Assembly (NCBI GenBank): GCA_025782395.1 | Contig: JALGZD010000131.1 | Coordinates: forward strand, 16,881-80,880 | Direction of reading: 5' to 3' | DNA length: 64,000 nucleotides | Origin: a bacterium | GTDB taxonomy: Bacteria > Joyebacterota > Joyebacteria > Joyebacterales > Joyebacteraceae | Shown: positions 3,241 to 21,359 of the stretch, one piece after another | Layout of the letters: every line of letters starts with the position of its first letter | How positions within the stretch are numbered: position 1 is the first letter of the stretch | Notes under the pieces: model-generated | Database searches by the model: none | Told to the model about the DNA's origin: nothing | The model's input: the letters and a program-made list of their open reading frames with translations, nothing else | Translations under genes and position numbers: made by a program

Positions 3241-3894
3241 CTACCTGTAAAGCGCCTTGATCGCGGACCAGGATCGTCCCTCAACGGGTACCGCGTTGTC
3301 GATCCAGATGTACATCCCGAAGTGCCATGTGTGCAGCGTCTCCGGGCAGTTCACGGTGAACGAGCCGTTGTAACTGCCGGTGCCGGCGTAGCCCTCGTAG
3401 ATGCCAGTGCCCTGCCGGATGATGACGATGCATCCGCTGAAGCTCCCAGCGCAGAACTCATCGTCGTCGAGAACGCCGTCGTTGTCGTCGTCCGTCACGA
3501 GCATCTGGATGGTGCAGACGCCCGTCATCGTACCGCCGAACGTGTCGTCGACGATGTGGAGCGAGTTCTGTTCGGGGAGGCCGTGGTTGACGTCGATGTA
3601 CCCGATCCAGTAGCCGGGCGTCCCGGGCGTGTAATTGCCGGCGAAGAACGTGTCCCAGAAGTACTGCGTTCGGGCGGCCGGCATCGAAGTATCCGGCCAG
3701 AGGAGATCCGGGACCGTGATGGTCCAGGAACCCTCGGTGATGTCGCCACCTGGGTCCATGGCACCCGTGAACGTCGGAGGGCTGTCGTTGATAAAGTCGC
3801 CGTAGCCGGTTCCGAAGAACCACACGAAGATCTGGTCGGCGGGGGCCGCTGCGGCCACGAGCAGGATCAGTGCGAGCGTAAGTAGCAGACGCAT
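3241..3894 (-). CDS. Small secreted protein with C-terminal AIKALYR motif
   Basis: The 217-residue product starts with a clear signal peptide (MRLLLTLALILLVAAAAPADQ; cleavage probably after the AxA-like PAD). The start at 3894 has GGAGAG at good spacing and lies about 90 nt downstream of a TTGACA-N17-TATACT promoter. The mature part is aromatic-rich and beta-like, with no family I recognise. It contains two internal Cys residues near residues 145-165 and a segment of alternating D/N (DDDNDGVLDDDEF) resembling a calcium-binding or VCBS-type loop. The last residues read PVEGRSWSAIKALYR, shared with the proteins at 19571-20140 and 20235-21359, and I infer a C-terminal sorting or anchoring signal. 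There is no FlgD-like domain. Confidence 0.75.
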   Translation of the reverse strand: MRLLLTLALILLVAAAAPADQIFVWFFGTGYGDFINDSPPTFTGAMDPGGDITEGSWTITVPDLLWPDTSMPAARTQYFWDTFFAGNYTPGTPGYWIGYIDVNHGLPEQNSLHIVDDTFGGTMTGVCTIQMLVTDDDNDGVLDDDEFCAGSFSGCIVIIRQGTGIYEGYAGTGSYNGSFTVNCPETLHTWHFGMYIWIDNAVPVEGRSWSAIKALYR

Positions 3895-3988
3895 CTGCGA
3901 CTCTCCTCTCTCGCCCGAAGGGCGCGTGAGGGACCTCTGTCTATGGAACACCATAGCTGACGGGGCTCGCAACCTCAGCAGTGGGGTC

Positions 3989-4017
3989 AGTATAGCGTAC
4001 AGCAACTGGCATGTCAA
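3989..4017 (-). promoter_or_regulatory. Strong sigma70-type promoter for the AIKALYR secreted protein
   Basis: On the minus strand, TTGACA (4017-4012) is followed by 17 nt and TATACT (3994-3989). Because the -35 TTG is itself a possible start codon of the open frame, the longer protein start at 4017 is an artefact. Confidence 0.75.
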
Positions 4018-4050
4018 GTGTTTGCGTGGGGAGTGTGTAAGCTAAGCACA

Positions 4051-4138
4051 AATGTCCTCTTTAACTGCAAAGCGAAAATGTCCTCTCTAGCTGCAAAGCT
4101 AGAATGACGTCTCTAACTGCAAAGCAGGAGTGTCGTCT
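4051..4138 (+). repeat. 26-bp tandem repeats, three to four decaying units, at the IS end
   Basis: Units begin at 4051, 4077, 4103 and (degenerate) 4129. The consensus is AATGTCCTCTCTAGCTGCAA followed by AGCTAG. The second unit contains a perfect 6-bp stem around a GCAA tetraloop (CTAGCT-GCAA-AGCTAG). The units abut, with no spacers. They are probably transposase binding sites. Confidence 0.75.
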
Positions 4139-4180
4139 GCAATTGCGCTGGTAGAATACCCTCCTCACGGAGGGGCACGC

Positions 4181-4255
4181 ATGAGAGGGAAGATCATCTT
4201 GAGTCATGAGGAGGCCCACAGAGCCGTTGTCCTGGATGAGCTTCTTGAGCGTCGC
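4181..4255 (+). pseudogene. Truncated transposase, N-terminal 25 codons only
   Basis: ATG at 4181 follows CGGAGGGG at proper spacing. The translation runs MRGKIILSHEEAHRAVVLDE and then LLERR. It resembles the start of ISNCY/integrase-core transposases, where a K(I/L)xLSxxEaxR segment precedes a helix-turn-helix. Homology-like sequence then stops, and the frame soon ends at about 4321 without any DDE domain. Confidence 0.55.
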
Positions 4256-4268
4256 CCTCGCTCCGGCA

Positions 4269-4297
4269 TTGATTCTCTGCGTAAACTGTGGTATCAT
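4269..4297 (+). promoter_or_regulatory. Promoter for the M14 carboxypeptidase, at the edge of the IS relic
   Basis: TTGATT (4269-4274) is followed by 17 nt and TATCAT (4292-4297), giving a leader of about 55 nt before the ATG at 4359. The promoter lies just downstream of the transposase relic. Confidence 0.6.
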
Positions 4298-4358
4298 CGT
4301 AAGTTGAAACCGAAGAGATGATGCATCGGCAGTTTCACCATGAAGGGAGCCGACGAGC

Positions 4359-6995
4359 ATGAGGTGTGTCTCGAAGTCCTTTGTTACAGTTCTGATGGCG
4401 GTCGGTCTTCTGCTTGGTCTTGCGGCGGGAGCTACGGCGACAAGCCCGGATGGACCGTACATTCAGGCCAGAGTTGAGTTCGCGTCCATGGCGGACTGGT
4501 ATCGGTTTGTGAACATCGAGGGTATGGACATCATGAAGTCCAAGCCGGGGGTGATGGTCGAGATCGTCACCAACGACGCCCAGATCGAAGAACTCCGTGC
4601 GCTCGGCTTCGGCGTGGAGGTAGAGATCGAGGATATGGCGGCCTTCTATGCTTCCCGTCTGCGCGGTCGCAACTTCGGTGCGTTCCACACCTTCTCCGAA
4701 ACGATCGATTTCATCGACAATCTGACCGCCACATATCCCTCGATCGTTGGGGAGAAGATAAGCATCGGTACGAGCATCGAGGGCCGCGACATCTGGGCGA
4801 TCAAGATTTCAGACAACCCGGGCGTGGATGAGACCGAGCCCGAGATTCTCCTCGATGGCCTGCATCACGCGCGCGAGCCCATTTCGGTCGACGTCCTTCT
4901 TCACTACATGACCTGGCTGACCTCGAACTATGGAACCAATCCGGAGGCTACGTTCCTCGTAGAGAACCGGGAGATCTGGTTCATCCCGGTCGTGAACCCG
5001 GACGGGTACTGCTACAACGAGCTGACGGATCCTGGTGGTGGGGGGATGTGGCGGAAGAACCGACGCGACAACGCAAGTTCGTCCTGCTACGGAGTGGACC
5101 CAAACCGTAACTACGACTACGAGTGGGGAGGAATCGGAAGCTCCGGTGACCCGTGCAGCGAGACCTATCGTGGCACGGCCCCTCACTCCGAGCCCTGCAT
5201 CCAGGCGTACACGAACTTCGTTGCAGAGCGGGAGTTTATCACCAACATCACGTTCCACTCGGTCGCGGGGATGGTTCTGCTGCCGTGGAGCTACACGAAT
5301 GACCATACGCCCGACGACGCGATGTTCCGCGTGATTGCTAACAACATGGCGCAGTACAACGGCTACCAGGTGGGGCAGGCAGGCGAGATTCTCTACAACT
5401 GCAGCGGGACGACGTGCGACTGGGCATACGGTATTGAGGATGTCTGGTCTCTCTGCGTCGAGGTCTCGGGAACAGGATTCTGGCCGGCTGAGAGTGAGAT
5501 CCCGAGCCTGAATGCCGAGAACCTCTGGCCGCAGCAATATATCTGTCGGATTGCGGGGAGCTACCTTGCAGTAGACGGAACCACGTTTTCCGGCGGCAAC
5601 GGTGACCAGGAACCGGACGCCGGTGAGACTCTCGATCTCGTCGTTGCGATCGAGAACCAGGGAATCATCGCCGGTGCGGCCGACGTGACGGTAGCTATCA
5701 CGACGGACGATCCGTACGTCCAGCTTCATGATGCAAGCACCACACTTGGTGCGATCCCGGCGGGGTCTACGGTGTCCAACTCAGGCGACCCGTTCTCCTT
5801 CACCGTTGATCCAGCCACGCCCGACGGACACGGGCTTGTCCTCACGCTCGAGATAACGGGCGACGGACTCTACATGGAAGAGACGCTCTCCTGGATGGTG
5901 GGTGAGCCGACGGTGGTCTTCTTCGACGACATGGAGAGCGGGACCGGGAACTGGGTTGAGAACGACGGCTACTGGGGGCTTACAGGTACGCAGTCACACT
6001 CGCCCTCGACCTCGTACACCGACAGCCCGAGCGGCGACTACGGTAACTACCGGAACACGTGGATCGAGCTGGCTACCGCGATCGATTTCTCATCGGCGAC
6101 CGCGGCGGATCTGTCGTTCTGGCACAGAGTCGATACGGAAGAGGATTACGACTACTGCTACGTTGAGGTCTCGGATGACAACGGCGCGGCGTGGCATCAG
6201 ATTGGTCCGAAGTACCACGGGAACAACTATGGATGGGAAGAGGTGGAACTGTCTCTGAACGATTTCGTCGGGACGGCGGATTTCCTGCTGAGGTTCCGGT
6301 TCACGTCCGACACGTACGTGCAGGAGGATGGATGGTACGTTGATGACGTGACGATCAGCGGCCCGCCGACCGGTAACGTGAAGCCGTCCGTTCCTATGCT
6401 CTCCGATCCTCCGGACGGCGGAACCGTGAGCAGTTCAACGCCGGAGCTCACTGTTGCCAACTCATCCGATCCGGACCCCGGAGACGTGCTGACATACGGC
6501 TTCCAGGTATACGACGACGCGCTCTGCACGGGTCTCGTCGCTTCCGTTAGCGGCGTGACCGAGGGTGCCGTCACGACGTCATGGACCGTGACATCGTCAT
6601 TGGACAACGGCACATACTACTGGCGCGCCTATGCCGACGACGGCACCGAGCGCAGCGCGCTCATGGCGACGGCATCGTTCATCGTCGAGGACACCGGGGT
6701 TGAGAGCCCGAGCATTGCCGTACTGGTTCTCCACCCGTGCCGGCCGAATCCCTTCGGCAGGCAGGCGTCACTGTCGTTTGAACTCCCGACTCAGTCGGAT
6801 GTGGCTTTCGCCATTTACAGCGTTGACGGTCGTCTGGTGAGGAGGCTCATAGACGCTGAGATGGATCCCGGTACGGTCGATGTGATGTGGGACGGTCGCG
6901 ACGATCGTGGCCGGCGTGTGGGAAACGGTCTCTACTTCATGAAACTGGTGGCCGGAGACGATGTCCGCCGCGGCAAGGTTGTCGTCCTTAGATAG
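4359..6995 (+). CDS. Secreted M14 zinc carboxypeptidase with FlgD-like C-terminal sorting domain
   Basis: This is an 878-residue exported protein. Residues 1-27 form a signal peptide ending GATA. A propeptide-like stretch follows to about residue 100, then a peptidase M14 domain. Its zinc ligands are in HHAREP (H/E near residues 169-172) and FHSVAG (His near 299). The substrate-binding segment is DPNRNYDYEWGG, and the catalytic Glu is in CVEVSG (near 366). Next come an adhesive beta region with a MAM/choice-of-anchor-like block (residues about 520-665), an Ig/Fn3-like domain (about 670-775) and a terminal FlgD/Ig-like domain (PNPF...IYSVDGRLVRRL...GLYFMKL). The last is the type seen on exoproteins of FCB bacteria. 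It probably degrades peptides outside the cell. A terminator follows. Confidence 0.9.
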   Translation: MRCVSKSFVTVLMAVGLLLGLAAGATATSPDGPYIQARVEFASMADWYRFVNIEGMDIMKSKPGVMVEIVTNDAQIEELRALGFGVEVEIEDMAAFYASRLRGRNFGAFHTFSETIDFIDNLTATYPSIVGEKISIGTSIEGRDIWAIKISDNPGVDETEPEILLDGLHHAREPISVDVLLHYMTWLTSNYGTNPEATFLVENREIWFIPVVNPDGYCYNELTDPGGGGMWRKNRRDNASSSCYGVDPNRNYDYEWGGIGSSGDPCSETYRGTAPHSEPCIQAYTNFVAEREFITNITFHSVAGMVLLPWSYTNDHTPDDAMFRVIANNMAQYNGYQVGQAGEILYNCSGTTCDWAYGIEDVWSLCVEVSGTGFWPAESEIPSLNAENLWPQQYICRIAGSYLAVDGTTFSGGNGDQEPDAGETLDLVVAIENQGIIAGAADVTVAITTDDPYVQLHDASTTLGAIPAGSTVSNSGDPFSFTVDPATPDGHGLVLTLEITGDGLYMEETLSWMVGEPTVVFFDDMESGTGNWVENDGYWGLTGTQSHSPSTSYTDSPSGDYGNYRNTWIELATAIDFSSATAADLSFWHRVDTEEDYDYCYVEVSDDNGAAWHQIGPKYHGNNYGWEEVELSLNDFVGTADFLLRFRFTSDTYVQEDGWYVDDVTISGPPTGNVKPSVPMLSDPPDGGTVSSSTPELTVANSSDPDPGDVLTYGFQVYDDALCTGLVASVSGVTEGAVTTSWTVTSSLDNGTYYWRAYADDGTERSALMATASFIVEDTGVESPSIAVLVLHPCRPNPFGRQASLSFELPTQSDVAFAIYSVDGRLVRRLIDAEMDPGTVDVMWDGRDDRGRRVGNGLYFMKLVAGDDVRRGKVVVLR

Positions 6996-7023
6996 CGGCA
7001 GACAACAACTTACGCATTTTATT

Positions 7024-7058
7024 ACCGGCTCTTCCCTAGAGGGGAGAGCCGGTCTTTC
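7024..7058 (+). terminator. Terminator after the M14 carboxypeptidase gene
   Basis: The stem ACCGGCTCTTCCC / GGGGAGAGCCGGT encloses a 4-nt loop (TAGA) and is followed by CTTTCT. Confidence 0.75.
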
Positions 7059-7140
7059 TGGAACACCCCTTGCAACGAAATGCACGTGCAGGCCCCTGCG
7101 GGGGTTCTTTCAGGCATGTGCAGACGTGAGGGGGTGTGTA

Positions 7141-9444
7141 ATGAAGAGTGCTAAGATGTTGACCGCCGTCGTTCTTGGGCTCGTGCTCACCTCATGCTCA
7201 GGCACGGTCGGTCCCTCCGACCCCCAGGACGAGTGGGTCATACCGACCCGTTCCGTGAGCGGAACTGTCGAATTGCCGGAAGGGTCACGACTGGATCTCG
7301 CGGATCTGGGTATTCTGTCGTTCGCCGAGGGCGCGACCGTGTCGGCGGACGGAAGCTTCACCGTTCGCATCCCCGATACCGATGCCCACCAGGTTCTCGT
7401 GGTGACGGATTCAGGCGGGACGCCGTTCGTGCTTGCCTATGTGGGGCCGACCGATGATGCAATCACTGTCGACGCTTCATCGACCGCGACGGCACTCGCG
7501 ATGCTCAACCCGTTCACTGTTCTGTTCTCAGCCGGTGACCGTGCGTCGCTGGCCGGCGCCGTTGTGGAGAAGAGCGACTGGGGTCGCCTTGTCACCTTGA
7601 TAGAAACCGTTCTTGCGAGCTCGTCCGGTGGATCACTGACGAGCGAGCTTGTGCCGGAGATTATGCAGGCGGCGTGTGAAGTTGTCGTGGACGCGCTCGA
7701 TGACGGAACAGTCAATCCGCTTCCGCTATTGGACCCATGGCTCGAGGACGGGACCGGTGACGGCGTTGCATGGGTGAACCGGGATCCGATCTACTACGCA
7801 TCGGTTTTCAGGACCGTCGGGAGCCCGGATTCGCTCCTGGTTCTCGTGGATTCGGCGAGAGAGAAACTGAGAATTTCGACCGGCTGGCCGCCTGTCGTTG
7901 ATGTTACAAGCGTGACGCGAAGCTATCCTGATCTGGGCGACGGTACATACGACGTCACGCTCATCTGGGCGACTTTCAGATCCTTCGATTCACAGACAGC
8001 GGATGGTCTGGCGACAAGGATGAATACGTGCCGGGCGATTGCGGAGATGGTCGCAGTGGGTTCAGGCGTGGCAGTCGACCACGGGCCGGCGGACCTCAAT
8101 CTCTCCGGGTGGGACAACAGACTGGGAGCCTGCGCGGCCGCGCACGATACGTACGGCTTCATAGGAACGCTTCTTGAGAATATTTCCCAGGAGAGCGATG
8201 CGGTCGCATCCTGGTTCTGGGAGGGCGCCAACGCTGATTGCGCCGAGTATGTTGAGGTCATCAGTCGGCTCATCGCCGGCATGTCGTTCTCAACAGAGGT
8301 TATCGCGGCAGGCGAATCGCGCGTGCCGCTCTTCTCTCAGATGGTAGCGCAGTCTCCCCAAGAGCAGCAGCGGATCACCCAGCTCGATGGCGTGATGAGC
8401 CACGTAGATTCACACTCTCCCCCCACGGCCGTCTTCGTGGTGAGCCCACTGTTCGCTACGGCCGGATCCACCTTCTCGTTCAGTGCCGTGGCCTCAACCG
8501 ATCCTGACGATGCGACCATCGATCTTCGGGTCCGCTGGGACTGGGACAACGACGGCGAGTGGGACACCGACTGGGACACTCAGAAGGTGATGCAGCACGT
8601 CTTCGAAGAGGCAGGCGCTCAGGATGTGGCGATGCAGGTGAAGGATCCCCTCAATCTCAATGATACTGTTGTGCACACGGTCAATGTCGGGGGGAGCCAG
8701 GAGAACGCGGTTCACATCATCATTTTCAGGGATGCGGTCCCTTGGGGTTCTGAAGTGCCGGCGGTGCTCGATCAGATGCTTGAGATCATGGAGTTCACCG
8801 AGGGCGTGGGTGCGAATGAATACGAAGTCCTTGGGTCTTCCGAGATGGCAACTGTCACGCTCACGCCGGGAGAGGATCTCGTCATCATCCAGAATGATCA
8901 GCCGCAGACGTTCTATGATGAGTATGCCGACAACCAGGTCCGCTTCCTTCAGTTCGTGTCGGGCGGCGGCACCATCTTCTGGGAGGCGTGCGATCTCGGA
9001 TGGAACGGCGGGTCCATCACGGATGCGGGAATCGTCCTGCCCGGCGCCATAGAACTCGCGGAGTATGAGACCTGGTACAACTACGTCAGTCTTCCTGGTG
9101 CCCCGATCGTTGAGGGGCTTCCGGATGAGCTCTATGGGCAGTACGCAAGTCATGAGGGCATCAGTAATCTCCCCGACGGCGCGACGGTGTATACGGTCGA
9201 CGACGCGGGGCATCCGACGTTGGTAGAGTACGACTACAGAGGTGGATGGGTCATAGTCACTACCCAGCCTCTGGAGCACAGCTTCTACAACAACTGGACG
9301 AGCGGTCATGTGATGCCGCGCGTTATCAGCTACGTGCTTGGGGTTCCCCTCGTTCACGATTTCGGCGACATCATCAAGCCTGAGTTGAGGGGGAGGCCCA
9401 GAGATGGTGGCGGGGTCAAGGGTCTGACCAGCGGGAAGCACTAG
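7141..9444 (+). CDS. Lipoprotein with PKD domain and C-terminal class I amidotransferase-like region
   Basis: The start is the ATG at 7141 (GAGGGGG upstream), not the longer open frame beginning inside the previous gene. The 767-residue product has a lipoprotein signal with lipobox LTSC (Cys near residue 20). Residues about 20-120 look like a carboxypeptidase-regulatory-like beta domain. A helical region of unknown family follows to about residue 420. A PKD domain comes next (PPTAVFVVSP...WDWDNDGEWDTDWD...HVFEEAG, residues about 422-520). The last 240 residues contain VIIQNDQPQTFYDEY, FLQFVSGGGTIFWEA and GGWVIVTTQPLEHSF, which resemble a ThuA/glutamine-amidotransferase-like flavodoxin fold lacking an evident catalytic Cys. 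It is a surface- or periplasm-anchored protein of unknown activity. Confidence 0.7.
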   Translation: MKSAKMLTAVVLGLVLTSCSGTVGPSDPQDEWVIPTRSVSGTVELPEGSRLDLADLGILSFAEGATVSADGSFTVRIPDTDAHQVLVVTDSGGTPFVLAYVGPTDDAITVDASSTATALAMLNPFTVLFSAGDRASLAGAVVEKSDWGRLVTLIETVLASSSGGSLTSELVPEIMQAACEVVVDALDDGTVNPLPLLDPWLEDGTGDGVAWVNRDPIYYASVFRTVGSPDSLLVLVDSAREKLRISTGWPPVVDVTSVTRSYPDLGDGTYDVTLIWATFRSFDSQTADGLATRMNTCRAIAEMVAVGSGVAVDHGPADLNLSGWDNRLGACAAAHDTYGFIGTLLENISQESDAVASWFWEGANADCAEYVEVISRLIAGMSFSTEVIAAGESRVPLFSQMVAQSPQEQQRITQLDGVMSHVDSHSPPTAVFVVSPLFATAGSTFSFSAVASTDPDDATIDLRVRWDWDNDGEWDTDWDTQKVMQHVFEEAGAQDVAMQVKDPLNLNDTVVHTVNVGGSQENAVHIIIFRDAVPWGSEVPAVLDQMLEIMEFTEGVGANEYEVLGSSEMATVTLTPGEDLVIIQNDQPQTFYDEYADNQVRFLQFVSGGGTIFWEACDLGWNGGSITDAGIVLPGAIELAEYETWYNYVSLPGAPIVEGLPDELYGQYASHEGISNLPDGATVYTVDDAGHPTLVEYDYRGGWVIVTTQPLEHSFYNNWTSGHVMPRVISYVLGVPLVHDFGDIIKPELRGRPRDGGGVKGLTSGKH

Positions 9445-9803
9445 CCTGGACGGCGATTCCTCTCCTTTGGCTCGCCGCGCTGCGACCCCTGGCGGGCCCA
9501 CCCCGCCCATTCGGACGGTCGATATCAGGGGCTTCCCCCTGGACAGTGACCGTCGTTCACTTCGGATTAGAACGTACTTGCCCTCGAGAGCGTTCTCATC
9601 TATCCTGTTGTTGAAGGGCATTCACACAGATCGGGTGGAGATCTGCGCACCGGCAGGCGGCCACTGGGGCGTGCGCGACAGACGCGGTGGCTCCGGATCT
9701 ACCGGTCGGGGAAAGCATGTCTTCGCGAAAAGTGAACCGGGAATCAGTCAGTTCTCGACTGAGGCACCGACAGATCGTATCGAAGGTGAGCGGAGGTCAA
9801 GTC
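9445..9803 (+). other. Gap of about 360 bases without a recognisable gene
   Basis: Open frames here are unsupported by ribosome sites or family similarity. I see a GC-rich stretch (9475-9530) with short inverted repeats and no convincing promoter for the downstream TetR gene. Confidence 0.4.
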
Positions 9804-10406
9804 ATGGCAAGGAAGCGGGTCGGAAACAAGAGGGAACGGATCATCAATGCCGCCGCCAAGTTCTTTGGCGAAAAGGGTTACCACGGAACAACGACATCCG
9901 AGATCGCAGATGCGGCGGGCGTCGCTGCAGGGACCATCTACATCTACTTCAAAAGCAAGGAGATGCTGATCGTGGCGGTCTTCGAGGAGTTCCTGGGTTT
10001 TCATATGGAACGCCTCAAGCAGGGAGTCGAGGCCGTTAGCGGGTCAGAGGCCAAGATGCGCCGCCTGCTCACGCTCGGGCTGGAGCTGATGGAGAGCAAC
10101 CCGTCCAGCGCGAGGATATTCCTCTCGCAGCTCAGGCAGAGCCCAGAGATGATTAAGACCGTCGCGAAGAGGAGCAGCCGGGCGTACAAGGAGATCATCG
10201 AAGGTGTGGTCGAGGACGGGATCTCGGCGGGGGATTTTCGGGAGTCCGACCCGGTCGCCACAGCGGTCATGGTATTCGGGGCTTATCAGAACATGGTACT
10301 CGAGTGGGTGGCCGCCGACTGCTCGTATCCGCTCAGCGCGAAAGCATCCGAGCTGTCGGAGTTCATCCTTATAGGTGTGGCGTGCAAGGAGACTGCAGAG
10401 AGCTAG
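9804..10406 (+). CDS. TetR/AcrR family transcriptional regulator
   Basis: The 200-residue protein starts at ATG 9804 with GCGGAGG 7 nt upstream; the frame extends further 5' but without a better start. The N-terminal helix-turn-helix (RERIINAAAKFFGEKGYHGT, then TSEIADAAGVAAGTIYIYF) is a textbook TetR_N domain at residues about 8-55. The C-terminal half is an all-helical ligand/dimer domain (AIVMVFGAYQNMVLEW-like region near residue 150) similar to the FadR/YsiA subgroup with TetR_C_33-type domains, but the ligand cannot be read from sequence. It is monocistronic and followed by a strong terminator. Neighbours are exoprotein genes and an M50 protease, with no obvious target operon. Confidence 0.9.
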   Translation: MARKRVGNKRERIINAAAKFFGEKGYHGTTTSEIADAAGVAAGTIYIYFKSKEMLIVAVFEEFLGFHMERLKQGVEAVSGSEAKMRRLLTLGLELMESNPSSARIFLSQLRQSPEMIKTVAKRSSRAYKEIIEGVVEDGISAGDFRESDPVATAVMVFGAYQNMVLEWVAADCSYPLSAKASELSEFILIGVACKETAES

Positions 10407-10456
10407 GGATGGGGCAGTAGGGAAGAGAGCCATGGCAGACAGCAGCCTGCAGAATC

Positions 10457-10495
10457 GAGAGGGCGCGACCGCGATGGTTGCGCCCTCTCTCTCTT
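10457..10495 (+). terminator. Terminator after the TetR gene
   Basis: GAGAGGGCGCGACC pairs with GGTTGCGCCCTCTC (one wobble), followed by TCTCTTT. It may also serve the convergent M50 protease gene. Confidence 0.8.
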
Positions 10496-10525
10496 TCGGT
10501 GGAAAGCCGGGTGGCCCGTGCCACA

Positions 10526-11695: not shown

Positions 11696-11702
11696 GATCC
11701 CC

Positions 11703-11928: not shown

Positions 11929-13719
11929 ATGCGCAGGCTGACTGCAGTGTTGGCGCTGGCAATCCTGGTCATCTTCGCCGCAGCAAGCTTCGCCAAGCTC
12001 GATGTGGAGCAGGTGACGACAGGCAAGGTGATCGAGGACGCTTTCGAGCGCGGTGTGATCGATCGTGGCGAGATGTACCTTCTGAAAGCCTACTCTGTCT
12101 ACGAGCCGGAACTCGTTCCCGACGAGTACGTCGGCGGCGTGATAGAGAAGTGTGGTCTGCCCACGATCGAGGAGCTGGAGAGCGTTCTCTCCACGCTGCC
12201 GGAAGCGGTCGCTGAGGAGATCCGGGGGCTGAGAACGAGGCCGACGTGCATGACGTATGTCGAGACCACGCACTTCCGTATCCACTACGATACATCGGGA
12301 ACGCACAAGATCTACGGCTGGCCGGACACGACCTTCCGTGACGACATCATGACAGCCGCAGAGTACTCGTGGACTCAGGAGGTCGACGTTGCCGGCTTCC
12401 GTCCACCTCCGCCAGACGGCAGCGATCCCGACGGTGGTGGTGGCAACGATCTCTACGACATCTACGTCCAGGATCTTGGCACGGGTCTTTTTGGCTACTG
12501 CCAGGCAACCTACTACCAGCCGGGCGGTCCGGCGAACGATGCCTCAAGCTTTGTCGTCATCAACCACGATTTCAGCGGATTCGGGCACACGCAGACAGAG
12601 TGCATCCAGATCACGGTGGCTCACGAGTTCTGCCACGGGTTGCAGGCGGCGCACGATGTCAACGAGCCTACTTGGTACAAGGAGTGCACATCGATGTGGG
12701 CTGAGGACTATGTGTACGATGACGTCAACGACTACAGGGGCTACATAAACTACTACTTCAACAGCCCGTATCAGTCGCTCGACTACAATCCTTCGGGTGG
12801 CATGCGCTGGTACGGAACAAGCGTTTGGAATTTCTTCCTCTGCGAGCACGTCGACCCGGATGTCGTCGTCGAGAACTGGTGGGAGATGGAGACGTCGGGC
12901 GAGTACAACGCTATGAACAACGTGCTCATGGCGCGTGGGACAACCCTCGAGGACCAATTCCACGAGTTCGCTATCTGGAATTTCTTCACGAACGCGCGGT
13001 ATGACGGCGGTCACTACGAAGAGGGGCAGTTCTTCCCGCTCAACGCGACCTCCAGGACGTTCAGCATGTACCCGATCACGGACGTCGGTCCTTACACGGC
13101 AATGCGCCCGGACGCCATGGCGTATAATCTCATCAGGTTCAACAACCCGGCTAACGGCTGGACCGGTCTCCACCTCTCGTTCAACGGTCCGTCGCTTGCC
13201 ATGCTCGACTACTGGGCCGACATCTGCACGCGGGACGACATCATCGGCGTCGGCGGAACGCACCATCTCGGCGAGATCAGCCTGAACCCGTGGGGTAACG
13301 GTGATACTACGATCGCGGGCTGGGACACGCTCGACTATGTCATGATGATCGTTGTCAATGGCAGCACGAACTACGATGACATGAATTACCTCTTCAGCGC
13401 CGAGCAGGTGGACACGGGTGTCGATGACATCGACGCTCATGTCTTTGCACTAAGGCCCGCGAGTCCGAACCCATTCGCTGCCGGGACGTCGATCTCCTAC
13501 TCGATCCAGAACGGTGGCGGAGCCGTTGAGATGACCATCTACGATATCAACGGTCGCGAAGTGAGAACGCTCGTGAACGAACAGATGTCAGCGGGCGACA
13601 AGCTGGCCTACTGGGACGGCATGGACAGCAACGGGGAGAGGGTCGCGTCCGGCGTCTACTTTGCCAGACTGAATGTCGATGGCCTCACTGCCTTCGGCAA
13701 GCTCGTCGTACTGAAGTAG
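11929..13719 (+). CDS. Putative secreted zinc metalloprotease (MXAN_6640-like) with FlgD-like C-terminal domain
   Basis: The 596-residue exported protein begins MRRLTAVLALAILVIFAAAS, a signal peptide, after GGAGGGAG. A region with the opening ETTHFRIHYDTSG (near residue 105) leads to the HEXXH-type motif VAHEFCHGLQ (His near 235 and 239) and a downstream WAEDYVYDD block. In MXAN_6640-like peptidases this block supplies the third ligand and a W-E signature. The last 90 residues are a FlgD/Ig-like sorting domain (SPNPF...IYDINGREVRTL...GVYFARL...LVVLK). The mature region is acidic and aromatic, as expected of an extracellular enzyme. The catalytic assignment rests on the HEFCH motif and the overall order; no substrate is predictable. 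A terminator at 13770 ends the unit. Confidence 0.78.
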   Translation: MRRLTAVLALAILVIFAAASFAKLDVEQVTTGKVIEDAFERGVIDRGEMYLLKAYSVYEPELVPDEYVGGVIEKCGLPTIEELESVLSTLPEAVAEEIRGLRTRPTCMTYVETTHFRIHYDTSGTHKIYGWPDTTFRDDIMTAAEYSWTQEVDVAGFRPPPPDGSDPDGGGGNDLYDIYVQDLGTGLFGYCQATYYQPGGPANDASSFVVINHDFSGFGHTQTECIQITVAHEFCHGLQAAHDVNEPTWYKECTSMWAEDYVYDDVNDYRGYINYYFNSPYQSLDYNPSGGMRWYGTSVWNFFLCEHVDPDVVVENWWEMETSGEYNAMNNVLMARGTTLEDQFHEFAIWNFFTNARYDGGHYEEGQFFPLNATSRTFSMYPITDVGPYTAMRPDAMAYNLIRFNNPANGWTGLHLSFNGPSLAMLDYWADICTRDDIIGVGGTHHLGEISLNPWGNGDTTIAGWDTLDYVMMIVVNGSTNYDDMNYLFSAEQVDTGVDDIDAHVFALRPASPNPFAAGTSISYSIQNGGGAVEMTIYDINGREVRTLVNEQMSAGDKLAYWDGMDSNGERVASGVYFARLNVDGLTAFGKLVVLK

Positions 13720-14338: not shown

Positions 14339-14374
14339 CGGACAGACCTTCGGCACGGAGCGACCACGTCGGCG

Positions 14375-16189: not shown

Positions 16190-16257
16190 TATGCATCCAT
16201 CCCGAAGGCGTTCTTGCGCACATTCACCAGTCGGAAGCAGCGGGTCGCCTGGAACAT

Positions 16258-16332
16258 CAGTGCGAGTATGGTCCCGCTCCCTTTGTCAGACGCGGCAGGC
16301 TGCCTGAATCTTCAGCGCGAGTATGGTCCCGC
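16258..16332 (+). repeat. 21-bp direct repeat in the divergent intergenic region
   Basis: TCAG(T/C)GCGAGTATGGTCCCGC occurs at 16257-16277 and 16312-16332, 55 bp apart, with one mismatch. It lies between the divergent genes at 16189 and 16423 and just upstream of the plus-strand promoter, so it could be an operator. Confidence 0.55.
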
Positions 16333-16362
16333 GCACCAGGGCCGTCAAGGAAGGAGCACGGC

Positions 16363-16391
16363 TTGACACGTTCGGGCGCACTGATTAGAGT
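16363..16391 (+). promoter_or_regulatory. Promoter for the LolA-like gene
   Basis: TTGACA (16363-16368), 17 nt, TAGAGT (16386-16391). The leader is about 25 nt. Confidence 0.7.
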
Positions 16392-16422
16392 GCCAGGAGT
16401 CGCATCTTGATGGAGGTTCCCG

Positions 16423-17121
16423 TTGTCAGAGCGAGGATGGAAGTGGATCAGTGGAGTGCTTGTCGTCGCCTGTCTCGTGCCGTTGGGTTCCGCCGCGGCG
16501 GAGGCTGACTCCCTGCTGCAGATCGAGGCACTTGTCGAGCGGTACGACGCAGGCATTCTGCGCACGCGCTCACTCATAGAGAGCCTGAATGTGAACCAGG
16601 TCATGGTCGAGCCGCAGAAGAGCGGCGCCGGCAAGCGGGCTACCGCTGTGCTCAAGTATGTGGCAGGGGAGGGCATGACAAGGCAGGAGCTCTCCTCCGA
16701 GCTCTCCCATCCGGTCGGCGAATACACGCTGGAAAGCCTGACGGGACCAGAGCTTGGAGTTGGTGAGTATTCGCTGACGCTCAGTGGTATAGAGGAGATG
16801 GAAGAGACTCTGTGCTACCGCGTCGACGTGGAGGCCATCTCGCGGGACATGCGTCACTTCGACGGGACTATCTGGATATCCGTCGCAGACTGCGGCCCGG
16901 TCCGTATAGTCGGTGAAGTGGCCGATCCTCCCTTTCCAATCACGGAGATCACGCTCGACAAGTCCTTCGCTCCGTGTGGCGATGGGATGCGCTTGCTCAC
17001 AAGGCACTCGGGAGAGGTTGAGGCGAACCTGATCCTCGGTCGGAAGCGGGGCCTCAGACACATCTTCTATGAGAATTACTCGATCAGACATAATACTGGG
17101 GTTTCCTGTATCTCTGCATGA
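16423..17121 (+). CDS. Exported outer-membrane-lipoprotein-sorting-like protein (LolA/LolB fold)
   Basis: The 232-residue protein starts at TTG 16423 with GGAGG 6 nt upstream. Residues 1-27 form a signal peptide (WKWISGVLVVACLVPLGSAAA). The mature part shows the pattern of 'outer membrane lipoprotein-sorting protein' domains: a helical start (LLQIEALVERYDAGILRTRS), a strand with conserved sugar- or lipid-facing residues (CYRVDVEA), a W-I strand (GTIWISVADCGPVRIVGE) and the final LRHIFYENYSI strand. These periplasmic half-barrels carry lipid-modified proteins or glycolipids. The similarity is by fold pattern only, and the specific partner is unknown. It stands alone, under its own promoter. 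Confidence 0.6.
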   Translation: MSERGWKWISGVLVVACLVPLGSAAAEADSLLQIEALVERYDAGILRTRSLIESLNVNQVMVEPQKSGAGKRATAVLKYVAGEGMTRQELSSELSHPVGEYTLESLTGPELGVGEYSLTLSGIEEMEETLCYRVDVEAISRDMRHFDGTIWISVADCGPVRIVGEVADPPFPITEITLDKSFAPCGDGMRLLTRHSGEVEANLILGRKRGLRHIFYENYSIRHNTGVSCISA

Positions 17122-17208
17122 AAGATGTTCAGGAAGGTTGCGGCTGACCATTCTTGGAGGCCTCGCGAGGGGCTGGGAGCTGCTGGAAGGCGATTCCCCA
17201 TCGTGAAG

Positions 17209-17259
17209 CAGGAGGGATGCGCGGGGCCCGGAGAGGCTTCCGTCTCCCTCCTGTTCTTG
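17209..17259 (+). terminator. Possible terminator after the LolA-like gene
   Basis: CAGGAGGGA (17209-17217) pairs with TCCCTCCTG (17245-17253), with additional inner pairing, then TTCTTG. Confidence 0.5.
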
Positions 17260-17287
17260 ACTGTCCCCGTTATCAGTGCTTCACTCT

Positions 17288-17323
17288 ACAATGGCTTCAT
17301 GAATCACAATGGCTTCATGAACC
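17288..17323 (+). repeat. 18-bp tandem duplication in the gap 17122-17454
   Basis: ACAATGGCTTCATGAA(T/C)C is present twice in tandem. The rest of the 333-base gap shows only the hairpin at 17209 and the strong ribosome site (AAGGAGGAAG) of the next gene. Open frames across it lack any support. Confidence 0.6.
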
Positions 17324-17454
17324 ACGCAGCCGTTGCCATGACGGCTCGCAACAAGAGCTTCGCCCTCAGGGTCGTTGCCCCCACCTCCTCCGTTCGCCCG
17401 GACGGGGCTTGTCTCTCAGGACGGGCGTGACCACTGCGCCATAAGGAGGAAGCC

Positions 17455-19419
17455 ATGTCCAGATTCGAGAATGTCGTTGTTCTGGCCATCGCCGTTGTGG
17501 CGGTCTCTTCAGCCGCCGCCAGTCCGGTAACGCTCATATGGGACTACACAGCCGGCGACCATATTCGCTGCGTCTCGCCGATCGAGGACATGAACGGCGA
17601 CAACATGCCGGACGTGCTGATCGAGATCGACCACACGGGTCTTGCGAGCGGCCATCTCAAGCTTATGAGCGGCAGCGACGGCGCTGAGATCTGGGGCGTC
17701 TCCCCGGTCGGAGGCGTGAGTGGTGGCTGCGGCTACGGCGACATGTGCCTGAACACATCGCCCGACCTGAACGGTGACGGGAAGTTCGAGGCGCTCCTCG
17801 GGACCTCCTGGGGTGGTCGAACGGCCTACGCCATCCTGGCGGATGAGGATGGCGCCGTGATGTGGGATTTCGACACGTACACCGACGATCCCCCGTCCGG
17901 GTGGATCTACTCCATCGACTGGATCCCGGACGTGACTGGAGACGGGGTTCCGGACATCATCTTCGGCTGCGGCAGTGACAACAACAACGCCTACTGTGTC
18001 GACGGAACGGACGGGAGCATGATCTGGAAGCTCCAGACTCCCGATGCGGTCTACGCGGTGGCTCGGATCGGTGACGTCAACGGGAACGGGACGACCGATG
18101 TACTCGTGGCGACCGGGGACACGTACGGCGAGTACACGTACTGCGTGGATGGTGGAAGCAGTGGTATTGCAGGTTACATATGGCGCTATCACGTGGATGA
18201 CTCGAGCTACTGTGTCACCGGCATAGAGGACGTGAATGGCGACCTCATCCCCGATGCCATCATCGGAGTATGGGACTCCGCCAGGAGTGTCATCTGCGCC
18301 AGCGGCGCTGATGGCAGCCAGATATGGACTCATGCAATCGGAACCTACGTGATGCGGGTTGTTCCAATCCAGGACCTTAACGATGATGGGAAGATGGAGG
18401 TGCTCGTCGCTTCCTGGGACAACGCCATCATCTGTCTCGATGGCCGAACGGGAAACGAGTACTGGAATGTCCCGACCGGGTCCACAAACGGTGGCGACGT
18501 ATGGACGCTATGGACGCTCGACGACGTCGACTACGACGGCTACGATGACGTGATTGCCGGTTCATTCGATCTTAGGGCCTACTGCGTGAGCGGACGAACG
18601 GGCACCGTTCTCTGGGACTACACTGTAGGAAACCGCGTCTACTCAGTGCGTGGGATTCCCGACGTGAATGGCGACGGAATAGGCGATGCTATCGTTGGGA
18701 CACAGTACTACGGAGGAACCGGCGGCAAAGTCTTCTGCCTCGACGCCGATGGAGACGGGACTGTTGTTCCCGAGATCGATGAGTTCGCCTGTCTGATGGA
18801 TGGTCGCGCCGTCTCGCTCTCGTGGAGGGCATCGGCGATTGCGATAGAGGGATTCAATGTCTATCGTGCGGAGGTGGAATCATCTGTGCCCGCAGATGAG
18901 TTTCGTTCCGCACTGATGGAGGATGGCATCGAACGCATCCCTGAGATCCTCGCCGCCAGGGCCGGAGGTGATGAACGAGGAGGGTTTTCGCGGCTGAACG
19001 GGGTGCTTGTCACCGAACTCACATACCGGGATATGATGGTTGTGAACGGCACGCGGTATGCTTACCTCATCGGCGCTGTTCACGCTGATGGCTCAGAGAC
19101 CCTGGCGGGGCCGATGGAGATACTGGTGGACTTCGTAGTACCGAAACTTCTGCTCTCGCCCACGATGCCGAACCCGGCTGTCTCGGGTCTGACTCTTGAG
19201 TTCACGGCTCCTGCCGGAGCGAGTATCGCGGCTCAAGTCTACGACCTCTCCGGGCGGCTCGTGGCTCAGATCCCTGTGTGTGTCGATCTGGAGGGGAGTG
19301 GGAAGGTCGCGTGGGACGGCCGCGCTGACGATGGCACCGATGTGGCTGCCGGTGTCTATATGCTCAGAGTTCAGGCCGGAGGCGAATCGTCGGGCAGGAA
19401 GGTCGTGCTCGTGCGCTGA
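17455..19419 (+). CDS. Secreted PQQ/FG-GAP-type beta-propeller protein with FlgD-like C-terminal domain
   Basis: The 654-residue exported protein has a signal peptide (VVVLAIAVVAVSSAAASP) and an AAGGAGGAAG ribosome site. About seven repeats of 40-50 residues follow. They alternate a calcium-type loop (DMNGDNMPDVLI, DLNGDGKFEALL, DVTGDGVPDIIF, DVNGNGTTDVLV, DVNGDLIPDAII) with a W-rich strand such as GSDGAEIWGVSP or GTDGSMIWKLQT. The W-strand is characteristic of PQQ-like blades, so the whole is a closed propeller of mixed FG-GAP/PQQ character. Residues about 440-560 form a fibronectin-III-like domain (VSLSWRASAIAIEGFNVYRA). The end (PNPAVSGLTLEF...VYDLSGRLVAQI...GVYMLRVQ) is a FlgD/Ig-like sorting domain. 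Likely cell-surface or secreted, of unknown ligand. Confidence 0.85.
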   Translation: MSRFENVVVLAIAVVAVSSAAASPVTLIWDYTAGDHIRCVSPIEDMNGDNMPDVLIEIDHTGLASGHLKLMSGSDGAEIWGVSPVGGVSGGCGYGDMCLNTSPDLNGDGKFEALLGTSWGGRTAYAILADEDGAVMWDFDTYTDDPPSGWIYSIDWIPDVTGDGVPDIIFGCGSDNNNAYCVDGTDGSMIWKLQTPDAVYAVARIGDVNGNGTTDVLVATGDTYGEYTYCVDGGSSGIAGYIWRYHVDDSSYCVTGIEDVNGDLIPDAIIGVWDSARSVICASGADGSQIWTHAIGTYVMRVVPIQDLNDDGKMEVLVASWDNAIICLDGRTGNEYWNVPTGSTNGGDVWTLWTLDDVDYDGYDDVIAGSFDLRAYCVSGRTGTVLWDYTVGNRVYSVRGIPDVNGDGIGDAIVGTQYYGGTGGKVFCLDADGDGTVVPEIDEFACLMDGRAVSLSWRASAIAIEGFNVYRAEVESSVPADEFRSALMEDGIERIPEILAARAGGDERGGFSRLNGVLVTELTYRDMMVVNGTRYAYLIGAVHADGSETLAGPMEILVDFVVPKLLLSPTMPNPAVSGLTLEFTAPAGASIAAQVYDLSGRLVAQIPVCVDLEGSGKVAWDGRADDGTDVAAGVYMLRVQAGGESSGRKVVLVR

Positions 19420-19502
19420 TACCATGCCGTCGGTGTCCTGCGAGCACAGTCTGACCAAGTGGCGCCGTACCGAGTACGTGCCGCTGTTCCGTGGCAGAAA
19501 GA

Positions 19503-19530
19503 GCCGCCCCATCCAGATGGATGGGGCGGC
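19503..19530. terminator. Bidirectional terminator between convergent genes
   Basis: A perfect 12-bp stem GCCGCCCCATCC / GGATGGGGCGGC encloses a 4-nt loop. Pyrimidine-rich tracts follow on either strand (CGTTTA; CTCTTTCT on the minus strand). Confidence 0.75.
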
Positions 19531-19570
19531 CGTTTATGCGTGATCCGGCAGCTCACACCGCTCACCGCGT

Positions 19571-20140
19571 TTATCTGTACAAGGCCTTGATAGCGCCCCA
19601 GGAGACATCCTCCACCGGATTACCTCCGCAGTCTCCGGCGAGAGGTTGCTTGCCCACACCGCCGTGGGAAAGGACGCAAAAAATCTGCACGCTGTCATCG
19701 CAGAACACGATCCAGCCCGGGAACTCCGGATGATAGGTGATCTCGATATCACCCGGTGTGCCCTGGTAGAAGCAATGCAGCACAGCGATAGCTATCGGTT
19801 GCATGTCGGGTGTTATGCATTCCGTCGAAGTCAGTGTGATGCCCGTCTCATAGTCACCGACTACCACATAGCCAGGCAGGAGGATCTCGAAACTCGTAGC
19901 AGAACTCATCCCCGGCGTTACCGCCAGCCCGAAGGATATGGCTGTGAATCCCGGCCCGCCGAGGAATGTCTCGACCATGACATAGGCATCAAAGGGCGTA
20001 TACGGCTCCGGGTCAATTCGGTGATCGTACTGGGGCGGATCGAAGTCGATGTAGATGTTGTCCGCAATGATCGGGTTCGCAAGCGCCGTGCCGAAACCCA
20101 GCACCGCGACCAGTATCGAAACAATCACAGTACGCATCAT
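19571..20140 (-). CDS. Small secreted protein with C-terminal AIKALYR motif
   Basis: The start at 20140 (ATG ATG) has an excellent AAGGAGGTGCGA ribosome site. The 189-residue product has a signal peptide (MRTVIVSILVAVLGFGTALA) followed by a mature, cysteine-poor beta-type domain that begins NPIIADNIYIDFDPPQ. I do not recognise the family; a cohesin-like or transthyretin-like fold is possible. Two Cys near residues 115 and 130 and CGG near 172 precede the last residues, NPVEDVSWGAIKALYR. The identical tail on two other exported proteins here, with different codons, suggests a sorting signal. It is adjacent to and co-oriented with the beta-helix gene at 20235-21359, which carries the same tail. 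Confidence 0.78.
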   Translation of the reverse strand: MMRTVIVSILVAVLGFGTALANPIIADNIYIDFDPPQYDHRIDPEPYTPFDAYVMVETFLGGPGFTAISFGLAVTPGMSSATSFEILLPGYVVVGDYETGITLTSTECITPDMQPIAIAVLHCFYQGTPGDIEITYHPEFPGWIVFCDDSVQIFCVLSHGGVGKQPLAGDCGGNPVEDVSWGAIKALYR

Positions 20141-20234
20141 TCGCACCTCCTTGTGAGCCTGATCCCAAACCACGCACTATCATTGTACCATAGAATACCC
20201 TGATTCTCCAGTCCGCGTTCGTCGGCCTCACCTG

Positions 20235-21359
20235 TTACCGTGGATTGGCCCGATAGAGGGCCTTTATCGCGCCCCAGGAGGCGTTCTCGACCGGACTGCC
20301 GCATGCGTCGCAGCCCATACCGTGAGCGCCTATCGATTCCTCCCAGTCATTGATGGCTGGAAGAGCCGGCGAGTCGGCACAAAGAGTGAAATCCAGGGCT
20401 CCGGAGTCGCAGAAGAGAGGAGGCTCCGACAGATTGTCGTAGTGATTGCCGCAGAGCACGTCGACGGGCAGGTTGCCGTAGAAGATACAGTGAGTGATCT
20501 CGGGCTCGCTGCTGAGGCAGTAGACCCCCCTGCCGCGCAGTCCGTAGGCCACGATCGTGTTCGTAATGAGCGGATTGGCGATCTGGCAGTAGATACCGCC
20601 TCCGTTGAAGGCATCGCCCCCATAGATCGTGCAGTAGGTGATCGTGGGATTGCCACCCTGGCAGTGGATGCTCCCCCCGACCATGTCGGCGGAGCAGTTC
20701 GAGATCGTGCATCCTGTGATCGTTGACTCCGAGTTCGAGCACCAGATGGCGCCGCCGGAGAAGCCCGCTTGGCCTCCTTCAAACATGCAGTCCTCTATGA
20801 CAGAGTCTGCGAACCCGGCGCTGATGCCGGCGCCGTAGTCGGCGGTGCAGCCGGTGAACGTGCAGCCAAGAATATGGGCCGATGCCGAGGCTATGGCCAC
20901 GGCTCCGCCGGTGCTCGCGTGACTGTTCTCAAAGATGCAGTTTCTGATGGTGATGCCGGAGCCTGCGGCACAGTAGATCGAACCACCGTTTCCGCCCGCG
21001 TAGCCGTTTCTGATCGTGAGGCCTTCGATGATGCTGGTCTGGTTCTCACCCGAGTGGAAGTAAAATGCGCGGTCGTAACCTTCGCAATCGATGATCACAT
21101 CTCCGGCTCGGGGCATGAACGCGGAGATACACAGGTTTCTTCCTGCGAAATCGAGACCACGGTTGTTTTCGCCGGTGTAGATGCCCGGGGCGACCAGAAT
21201 CGTGTCGGCTTGGCTGACATTGGTATCGGCTATGGCCTCGGCGATGGTCAGCCAGTCCCCGTTGCCTTCAAGATCCACCAGGAAAGTGTCTGCTACCGCG
21301 GGCAGAGCGATGATCGCGAACGCCAGTGTGGCTGCAAGCAGGCAAGCGCTGTTTTTCAT
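20235..21359 (-). CDS. Secreted right-handed parallel beta-helix protein with AIKALYR motif
   Basis: The 374-residue exported protein has a signal peptide (CLLAATLAFAIIALPAVA). The sequence then reads LVDLEGNGDWLTIAEAIAD and ILVAPGIYTGENN. This is the usual entry to right-handed beta-helix proteins that also appears in the C1 peptidase at 29916. About ten coils follow with the repeat N/S-C-x-F/I-x-x-S/C-x-A-x-x-G-G, for example ITIRNCIFENSHASTGGA, HILGCTFTGCTADYGAG and ITGCTISNCSADMVGG, a pattern of the Pmp/NosD-like families. The tail is SPVENASWGAIKALYR followed by four more residues (ANPR). It is probably a surface adhesin or polysaccharide-binding or -lyase-like protein, but no catalytic residues are recognisable. 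Confidence 0.82.
   Translation of the reverse strand: MKNSACLLAATLAFAIIALPAVADTFLVDLEGNGDWLTIAEAIADTNVSQADTILVAPGIYTGENNRGLDFAGRNLCISAFMPRAGDVIIDCEGYDRAFYFHSGENQTSIIEGLTIRNGYAGGNGGSIYCAAGSGITIRNCIFENSHASTGGAVAIASASAHILGCTFTGCTADYGAGISAGFADSVIEDCMFEGGQAGFSGGAIWCSNSESTITGCTISNCSADMVGGSIHCQGGNPTITYCTIYGGDAFNGGGIYCQIANPLITNTIVAYGLRGRGVYCLSSEPEITHCIFYGNLPVDVLCGNHYDNLSEPPLFCDSGALDFTLCADSPALPAINDWEESIGAHGMGCDACGSPVENASWGAIKALYRANPR

What the first reader, a model, noticed from the sequence alone, without database searches (positions are those of the whole stretch)
3241..21359. Shared C-terminal motif PVExxSWxAIKALYR on three otherwise unrelated exported proteins
The proteins at 3241-3894, 19571-20140 and 20235-21359 all have signal peptides, unrelated bodies and tails reading PVE[GDN]xSW[SG]AIKALYR; one has four extra residues (ANPR). 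Codons differ at most synonymous positions: Ala GCG/GCT/GCG, Leu CTT/TTG/CTC, Arg AGG/AGA/CGG. Selection therefore acts on the protein, not on a DNA repeat. None of the three carries the FlgD-like domain found on four other exoproteins here. The tail is short, ends in basic residues and lacks a hydrophobic helix, so it does not look like PEP-CTERM or an LPXTG signal. I infer an undescribed C-terminal sorting, anchoring or processing tag.
Basis: partly seen in the sequence, partly recalled or inferred. Interest (0 to 1): 0.85.

Follow-up and report, generated by a model that had tools for sequence, protein, structure and literature searches.

The report
New C-terminal tag for exported proteins
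Up to dozens of exported proteins per genome in little-studied bacteria (labelled Eisenbacteria, Krumholzibacteriota and Coatesbacteria) end in the same 15-residue tail around W-G-x-I-K-x-L-Y-R, which appears in no family library or paper searched here and is likely an address label that would send them across the outer membrane, possibly through the type IX secretion system.

Summary
All three genes lie on the minus strand and end in PVExxSW[SG]AIKALYR. A DNA pattern for the tail plus stop occurs in 20 of 20 genomes of the window's phylum (10-52 per genome, 0 in reversed controls) and in 69 of 80 of the Krumholzibacteriota; a profile also finds it in Coatesbacteria and in 10 of 270 genomes of other phyla. 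It marks exported proteins: 149 of 163 tagged ORFs have a signal peptide by my rule (untagged 299 of 872), 188 of 190 profile hits lie within 20 residues of the C-terminus, bodies fall into 70 clusters, and none of 185 tagged proteins carries the FlgD-like type IX tail. Like bodies, including adjacent cohesin genes, occur with either tail; three tagged bodies are NCBI choice-of-anchor domains. Exosortase does not follow it (absent from 15 genomes with at least 10 tags). SprA and PorV, the type IX translocon and shuttle, match in 80 of 80 genomes tested, tag-poor ones included. I read the tag as a short third class of type IX signal; that step is inferred and the receptor unknown.

The parts
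3241..3894 (-). tagged exported protein 1 (217 aa), signal peptide MRLLLTLALILLVAAAAPA; of 24 database proteins incl. itself 20 end in the tag, 4 end just before it
3244..3288 (-). tag PVEGRSWSAIKALYR
19571..20140 (-). tagged exported protein 2 (189 aa from the ATG at 20140), predicted cohesin-fold body; predicted separate C-terminal helix over the tag (low confidence)
19574..19618 (-). tag PVEDVSWGAIKALYR
20235..21359 (-). tagged exported protein 3 (374 aa), beta-helix-like repeats (NosD 19.8 bits, below cut-off; clusters with other beta-helix proteins); single-sequence model has a low-confidence helix over the tag
20250..20294 (-). tag PVENASWGAIKALYR, followed by ANPR (20238-20249) before the stop
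4359..6995 (+). M14 carboxypeptidase with FlgD_ig tail (the alternative tail, for comparison)
11929..13719 (+). protein with FlgD_ig tail (Por_Secre_tail below cut-off)
17455..19419 (+). beta-propeller protein with FlgD_ig tail (Por_Secre_tail below cut-off), next to the tagged pair
29787..33572 (+). papain-type peptidase with beta-helix and FlgD_ig tail; its beta-helix is similar to tagged beta-helix proteins

Best explanation
[quoted passage not shown] Shown: nearly all tagged proteins have a Sec signal peptide by rule, their bodies belong to many families, and the 15-residue module PV-E-x-x-[ST]-W-G-x-[IV]-K-[AS]-L-[YF]-R sits at the C-terminus (188 of 190 hits) and was on none of the FlgD-tailed proteins examined. 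Predicted: the tag is a detached amphipathic helix on a flexible linker. Inferred: in the periplasm this helix, with its near-invariant Trp and Lys, is bound by one of the many PorV-family shuttles and passed with SprA to the surface. Unknown: whether the tag is then cut off, and whether the protein is released or anchored.
For: Signal peptide in 149 of 163 full-length tagged ORFs, 299 of 872 untagged. Of 190 profile hits of 14 bits or more, 188 within 20 residues of the C-terminus; 0 in reversed proteins. Tag columns far more conserved than bodies. 0 of 185 tagged proteins have a FlgD-type tail, 72 other ORFs do. Alternative tails on like bodies: adjacent cohesin-like genes in G073, one with each tail (28% identity over 127 residues; the FlgD-tailed one below the Pfam cohesin cut-off); among 82 cohesin relatives 61 have the tag form, 18 more read as variants and 1 has PF13860; beta-helix, MAM-like and FG-GAP bodies shared. 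Tagged choice-of-anchor J (51 and 41.6 bits, cut-off 30) and V (91, cut-off 42) domains end about 20 residues before the C-terminus. SprA matches in 80 of 80 (74 over cut-off) and 14 of 14 (12 over) genomes, PorV family over cut-off in 80 of 80 with 2-19 matches, 18 in the window's genome. FlgD tails here end K at -6 and R/K at -1 (51 and 61 of 72), the tag K at -5 and R at -1. In P. gingivalis the HBP35 signal was mapped to the last 22 residues, the CTD end tolerates extension and a Lys is conserved in the last strand (PMC11285876, section 2.2 read); a CTD Lys contacts PorV (PMC10994853, passages). 14 of 185 tags are followed by 1-12 more residues.
Against: T9SS was found in every genome tested of these groups, so its presence does not discriminate; in the Coatesbacteria phylum SprA matches in 14 of 14 genomes but the exact pattern is in 2 and a confident profile match in 9. 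Known CTDs are beta-sandwiches; the tag is 15 residues, predicted helical at low confidence, and shows no profile similarity to the FlgD tail. Its helical moment is above shuffles, but the strand-angle moment is nearly as high (0.45 against 0.48), so this does not tell helix from strand. PorV number follows tag number over 79 genomes (rho 0.44) but not clearly within 53 Krumholzibacteriota (rho 0.24, p 0.08). Only one PorV-like ORF was seen beside tagged genes (L107). Two paralogues of the window's genome carry the motif more than 320 residues from the C-terminus. 14 of 163 tagged ORFs have no signal peptide by my rule.
Confidence: 0.45

Rival explanations
1. A T9SS-independent sorting or anchoring system: the tail is recognised by an unknown, lineage-specific periplasmic or outer-membrane enzyme or receptor that anchors or processes the proteins.
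For: Distribution is sharply split: 20 of 20 in the own phylum at the cap, then 10 of 270 other genomes with 15 or more matches and 238 with none, as for a dedicated system; T9SS is not sufficient for the tag.
Against: No candidate enzyme found; exosortase does not follow the tag; no hydrophobic segment to hold the protein in a membrane (1 of 185).
Confidence: 0.27
2. A docking motif used after secretion: the tail binds a common surface scaffold, S-layer or filament, like dockerin-cohesin pairing, and does not itself drive export.
For: Cohesin-like and other binding domains occur among tagged bodies; dockerin-like small proteins lie beside tagged genes in three genomes.
Against: A docking motif need not be C-terminal, yet 188 of 190 hits are; does not explain mutual exclusion with the FlgD tail.
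Confidence: 0.13
3. A periplasmic retention, chaperone-binding or degradation tag.
For: Short, soluble, mostly ends in a basic residue; SsrA-like tags are also short and C-terminal (recalled).
Against: Fixed gene-encoded tail on bodies of which some are choice-of-anchor domains (that such domains are surface proteins elsewhere is recalled); conservation over several phyla.
Confidence: 0.07
4. A classical membrane-anchored sorting signal (PEP-CTERM/exosortase, GlyGly-CTERM/rhombosortase, LPXTG/sortase).
For: Some bodies match NCBIfam families named after such signals, weakly or below cut-off; exosortase matches in 49 of 80 genomes, 47 over cut-off.
Against: No exosortase match in 15 genomes with 10 or more tags; a match in all 11 genomes without exact tag (10 over cut-off, G116 weak); within Krumholzibacteriota genomes without it have MORE tags (p 5e-5). 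No transmembrane segment. Sortase and rhombosortase genes were not searched.
Confidence: 0.03
5. A DNA repeat or recent gene conversion that happens to be coding.
For: Some tagged genes are neighbours (28 of 152 loci hold two or more).
Against: All synonymous codons are used at conserved positions, e.g. six Leu and six Arg codons; 70 body clusters.
Confidence: 0.01

Closest known systems
T9SS type A CTD (PF18962 Por_Secre_tail, TIGR04183; FlgD_ig PF13860-like tails in these genomes)
   Same: C-terminal, on Sec-exported proteins of many unrelated families, soluble, conserved Lys shortly before a basic last residue, C-terminal extensions tolerated, SprA and PorV in the same genomes
   Different: 15 residues instead of a seven-stranded beta-sandwich, predicted helix, invariant Trp, no profile similarity, not seen on the same protein
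T9SS type B CTD with PorP/SprF shuttles
   Same: shows that one T9SS can read several signal classes through different shuttles (PMC12618676, passages seen)
   Different: motifs spread over the last 100 residues, often next to its shuttle gene; PorP/SprF genes were not searched here
PEP-CTERM/exosortase, MYXO-CTERM/myxosortase, GlyGly-CTERM/rhombosortase
   Same: short C-terminal homology domain on many exported proteins per genome, found by comparison of genomes (abstract beginnings)
   Different: those hold a transmembrane helix (recalled); this tag has none, and exosortase does not follow it
Dockerin-type docking modules
   Same: C-terminal module shared by secreted proteins; cohesin-like bodies occur among tagged proteins
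   Different: no calcium-loop repeat (recalled feature), 15 residues only

Membership tests
T9SS type A/B CTD | Match to a CTD profile (PF18962, TIGR04183, PF13860) | tested here: not met
   none among the families listed for 67 tagged representatives (Pfam: 25 of 28 shown; NCBIfam: all 18 shown); own FlgD-tail profile hits 0 of 185 tagged; hhalign probability 0.1
T9SS type A/B CTD | Beta-sandwich fold | tested here: not met
   tail is 15 residues; predicted helix 174-187 with pLDDT about 51-54 and 362-371 with pLDDT 30-39
T9SS cargo (function) | Sec signal peptide | tested here: met
   149 of 163 tagged ORFs by own rule
T9SS cargo (function) | SprA translocon and PorV shuttle in the genome | tested here: met
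   matches in 80 of 80 genomes each (SprA 74, PorV 80 over cut-off), one probable duplicate genome (G017/G024)
T9SS cargo (function) | SprA/PorV-dependent export | not testable with these tools
   needs an experiment
PEP-CTERM/exosortase | Transmembrane segment before the basic end | tested here: not met
   1 of 185 tagged proteins has a TM-like segment in the last 60 residues by own rule
PEP-CTERM/exosortase | Exosortase in every genome with targets | tested here: not met
   no match in 31 of 80 genomes, 15 of them with 10 or more tags; assemblies may be incomplete
LPXTG/sortase, GlyGly-CTERM/rhombosortase | Sortase or rhombosortase gene | not tested
   no search left; lack of a transmembrane segment speaks against both
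Choice-of-anchor proteins | Choice-of-anchor domain directly before a C-terminal sorting signal | tested here: met
   3 of 40 individually scanned representatives (of 67) over the curated cut-off, domain ending about 20 residues before the end; meaning of the name recalled
Lipoproteins | Lipobox cysteine at the signal peptide end | tested here: not met
   8 of 154 tagged proteins with a signal peptide by own rule

The most novel reading that the evidence does not exclude
A self-standing Trp-Lys helix tag is a previously undescribed class of C-terminal outer-membrane export or anchoring signal, used by up to dozens of proteins per genome in at least three phyla, read by a dedicated receptor (perhaps one of the expanded PorV-family proteins) and exchangeable with the Ig-like type IX tail.
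Probability: 0.55. Interest if true: 0.85.

Novelty: new variant of a known kind. Interest (0 to 1): 0.78.

Why it matters
Sorting tags such as PEP-CTERM were first seen as shared C-termini and then led to their machinery (abstract beginning). This tag marks the likely surface and secreted proteome of several uncultured phyla whose proteins are mostly 'hypothetical'. If a 15-residue tail can serve the type IX system, it would separate what that machine recognises from the Ig-like fold, and give a short portable export tag. If it uses another machine, that machine is unknown.

Tried and rejected
Exosortase as partner: rejected. PorV copy number as a sign of a tag-specific shuttle: weak and confounded. 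PorV genes beside tagged genes: one case only (L107; the neighbour test used wrong reading frames and is void). Recurrent untagged neighbours of tagged genes: no shared partner family recognised; the largest mixed cluster was held together by FlgD tails. Sequence homology between tag and FlgD tail: none. Absence of the tag from 11 Krumholzibacteriota genomes: an effect of the strict pattern; the profile finds 6-26 matches at E<=1 there, with ends such as WGAIKSMMD. Regions around SprA in two genomes: no tagged ORF among those listed. Structure of protein 3 from a single sequence: mean pLDDT 55, last blocks 28-39, of little use beyond a low-confidence helix over the tag.

Limits: many loci were fetched with patterns that fix W, K, L, Y/F, R and often the stop, so those columns of the logo are partly by selection; P, V, E, [ST] before W and G were not fixed in the patterns (G was, PVE and S/T-like letters). 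Signal-peptide, lipobox and transmembrane calls use simple rules of my own. Untagged ORFs include spurious ORFs, which lowers their signal-peptide share. One search scored at most 32 candidates per genome, so high counts are floors.
Full report
What is there. The three genes are on the minus strand and end in PVEGRSWSAIKALYR, PVEDVSWGAIKALYR and PVENASWGAIKALYR+ANPR. The window's genome (2.91 Mb, 231 contigs) has 29 cores TGGNNNNNNRTNAARNNNYTNTWYMR against 0 for the reversed pattern. With a stop codon added, the pattern is found in 20 of 20 genomes of the phylum held, 8 genera, 10-52 per genome, control 0 in all; in 69 of 80 genomes of the phylum of a 'Candidatus Krumholzibacteriia' record, control 1 in total; and in 2 of 14 of the phylum of a 'Candidatus Coatesbacteria' record, control 0. 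G024, reached from the Effluviviaceae record, has the same counts as G017, and G030, from a Candidatus Eisenbacteria record, the same as G008, both of the own family; so the own phylum is probably one labelled with these names.

The exact pattern is too strict. A 16-position profile (A4) at E<=1 per genome finds 64 matches in the own genome and 6-26 in each of the 11 Krumholzibacteriota genomes that lacked the exact pattern; in the 14 Coatesbacteria-phylum genomes it finds 2-64, of which nine have a best E of about 2e-4 or better and five (G118-G121, G123) none better than 0.009, so those five are doubtful. The variants lose the last residues, as WGAIKSMMD and WGAVKALY. Sampled stretches of seven of the ten (338 kb) hold five tags, three in G324 and two in G250, all C-terminal on proteins with a signal peptide by my rule, and none in the samples of the other five; 233 kb from seven tag-free genomes and the reversed proteins hold none.

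What the tagged proteins are. From all loci fetched by then (1.47 Mb, 1,367 unique ORFs) 185 end in the tag. A signal peptide is found by my rule in 149 of 163 full-length tagged and 299 of 872 untagged ORFs; 8 of 154 look like lipoproteins. The logo is P.55 V.65 E.70 x x [ST].96 W G.90 x I.88 K A.69 L.87 Y.89 R.92; 171 of 185 end right after the 9-residue core, 14 have 1-12 more residues (W, K, L, Y/F, R and stop were partly fixed by the searches). All synonymous codons are used. Of 190 profile hits of at least 14 bits, 188 lie within 20 residues of the C-terminus, none in reversed proteins; two tandem paralogues (L013, L014) have it some 330 residues from the end. Bodies form 70 clusters at E 1e-6, 46 of them single proteins. 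Of 67 representatives, Pfam matches are scattered: LTD, beta-helix, NHL, Cleaved_Adhesin, FG-GAP, cohesin, MAM and others, none of the 25 shown a tail model; NCBIfam lists 18 families, none a tail model. Among 40 of the 67 scanned singly, two choice-of-anchor J (51.0 and 41.6 bits, cut-off 30), one choice-of-anchor V (91, cut-off 42) and one DNRLRE domain (64.4, cut-off 34) pass the curated cut-off. NCBI uses 'choice-of-anchor' for domains that precede different sorting signals in different lineages (recalled).

Two alternative tails. FlgD-type tails were found on 72 of the 1,367 ORFs and on none of the 185 tagged. The six such proteins scanned match PF13860 over its cut-off; three also match PF18962, the T9SS sorting domain, one of them over its cut-off. 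Tagged proteins are shorter (median 266 against 715 residues). Bodies are shared: in G073 two adjacent genes encode cohesin-like domains (28% identity over 127 residues), one ending in a variant tag (SWGRLKSSYIK), the next in a FlgD tail, in a run that also holds another tagged gene and a 1,442-residue FlgD-tailed protein. Among 82 database relatives of two tagged cohesins, 61 end in the tag form, 1 (P0090) has PF13860, and of 20 'other' 18 read by eye as variants such as SWGIIKSRFR, one is partial and one unlike. Of 24 proteins similar to window protein 1, itself included, 20 carry the tag and 4 end just before it; whether those ends are true stops could not be checked. Further body matches between the two classes are listed.

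Structure. With 21 sequences, AlphaFold2 gives protein 2 a confident beta-sandwich (block means 89-96 over residues 31-170) and a separate C-terminal helix 174-187 with pLDDT about 51-54 after a linker; Foldseek's 30 matches at E<=0.001 are all from cohesin or scaffoldin entries (TM-score by target up to 0.71). Protein 3, folded alone, also gets a helix over the tag, at pLDDT 30-39. The ten-residue tag has a higher helical moment than shuffled tags (0.48 against mean 0.35, maximum 0.38 of 200 shuffles), but its moment at the strand angle is 0.45, so amphipathy does not settle helix or strand. The helix is a prediction of low confidence.

Which machine. SprA (TIGR04189) matches in 80 of 80 genomes, 74 over the cut-off, controls 0 of 14, and in 14 of 14 Coatesbacteria-phylum genomes, 12 over the cut-off. 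PorV (NF033709) is over the cut-off in 80 of 80, with 2-19 matches, 18 in the own genome; of 14 controls one Bacteroides matches, below cut-off. G017 and G024 are probably one genome counted twice. Exosortase (PF09721) matches in 49 of 80, 47 over cut-off; it has no match in 15 genomes with at least 10 tags and a match in all 11 without an exact tag (G116 below cut-off); in Krumholzibacteriota genomes without it have more tags (p 5e-5), the reverse of a partner. Of the two kinds of C-terminal sorting machine that I searched, only T9SS is always there. The FlgD tails here end with Lys/Arg at -6 (65 of 72) and Arg/Lys at -1 (61 of 72); the tag ends with Lys at -5 and mostly Arg at -1. In P. gingivalis the end of the CTD is essential but may be extended, and the HBP35 signal was mapped to the last 22 residues (PMC11285876, section 2.2 read whole). 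A conserved CTD Lys contacts PorV (PMC10994853, passages). Different signal classes use different shuttles (PMC12618676, passages). These parallels are why I commit to T9SS, at 0.45. Against it: T9SS presence does not separate tag-rich from tag-poor genomes, the tag has no detectable homology to a CTD, and PorV number is only loosely related (rho 0.44 over 79 genomes, 0.24 with p 0.08 within 53 Krumholzibacteriota).

Literature. No paper in the held library contains IKALYR as a sequence: the only hit is, by its listing, a health-care paper. None joins Krumholzibacteria or Eisenbacteria with 'type IX secretion'; four papers hold Krumholzibacteri and 'secretion system', of which passages of PMC11495043 were seen and do not treat this, the other three seen as listing only. 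Further listings. Preprints and most subscription journals are not held.

Verdict. A real, widespread, apparently undescribed C-terminal tag of exported proteins (undescribed as far as Pfam, NCBIfam and the paper searches named here go); sorting, export or docking is the likely role (0.85 together), T9SS the likely route (0.45).

Noticed in passing
L013:691-2514 and L014:1144-2520 (own genome, contig C13): Two tandem paralogues carry the tag motif inside the protein, followed by some 330 further residues with similar third-position GC; fusion, recent stop loss or another use of the motif is open.
   Followed up: partly
window 19571-20140, minus strand: The body of protein 2 has a predicted cohesin fold although no Pfam model matches it.
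   Followed up: partly
L217:9948-10595 minus; L219:8132-8800 plus; L222:3294-4214 minus: Proteins with a dockerin-like end (as DGDQVVNLSDFGFFGEHY) sit beside tagged genes in three genomes of the Krumholzibacteriota phylum; possible cohesin-dockerin partners (read by eye).
   Followed up: no
own genome: PorV-family proteins are expanded: 18 matches in this genome and 9-19 in the 15 genomes of its family tested.
   Followed up: partly
L218:9167-15848: A run of minus-strand genes mixes tag-ended and FlgD-tailed proteins, one with 1,442 residues.
   Followed up: partly
L217:4201-8271 minus: A 1,356-residue protein that looks to me like a C25-type (gingipain/PorU-like) peptidase with a FlgD-like end lies beside two tagged genes; family not tested.
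   Followed up: no
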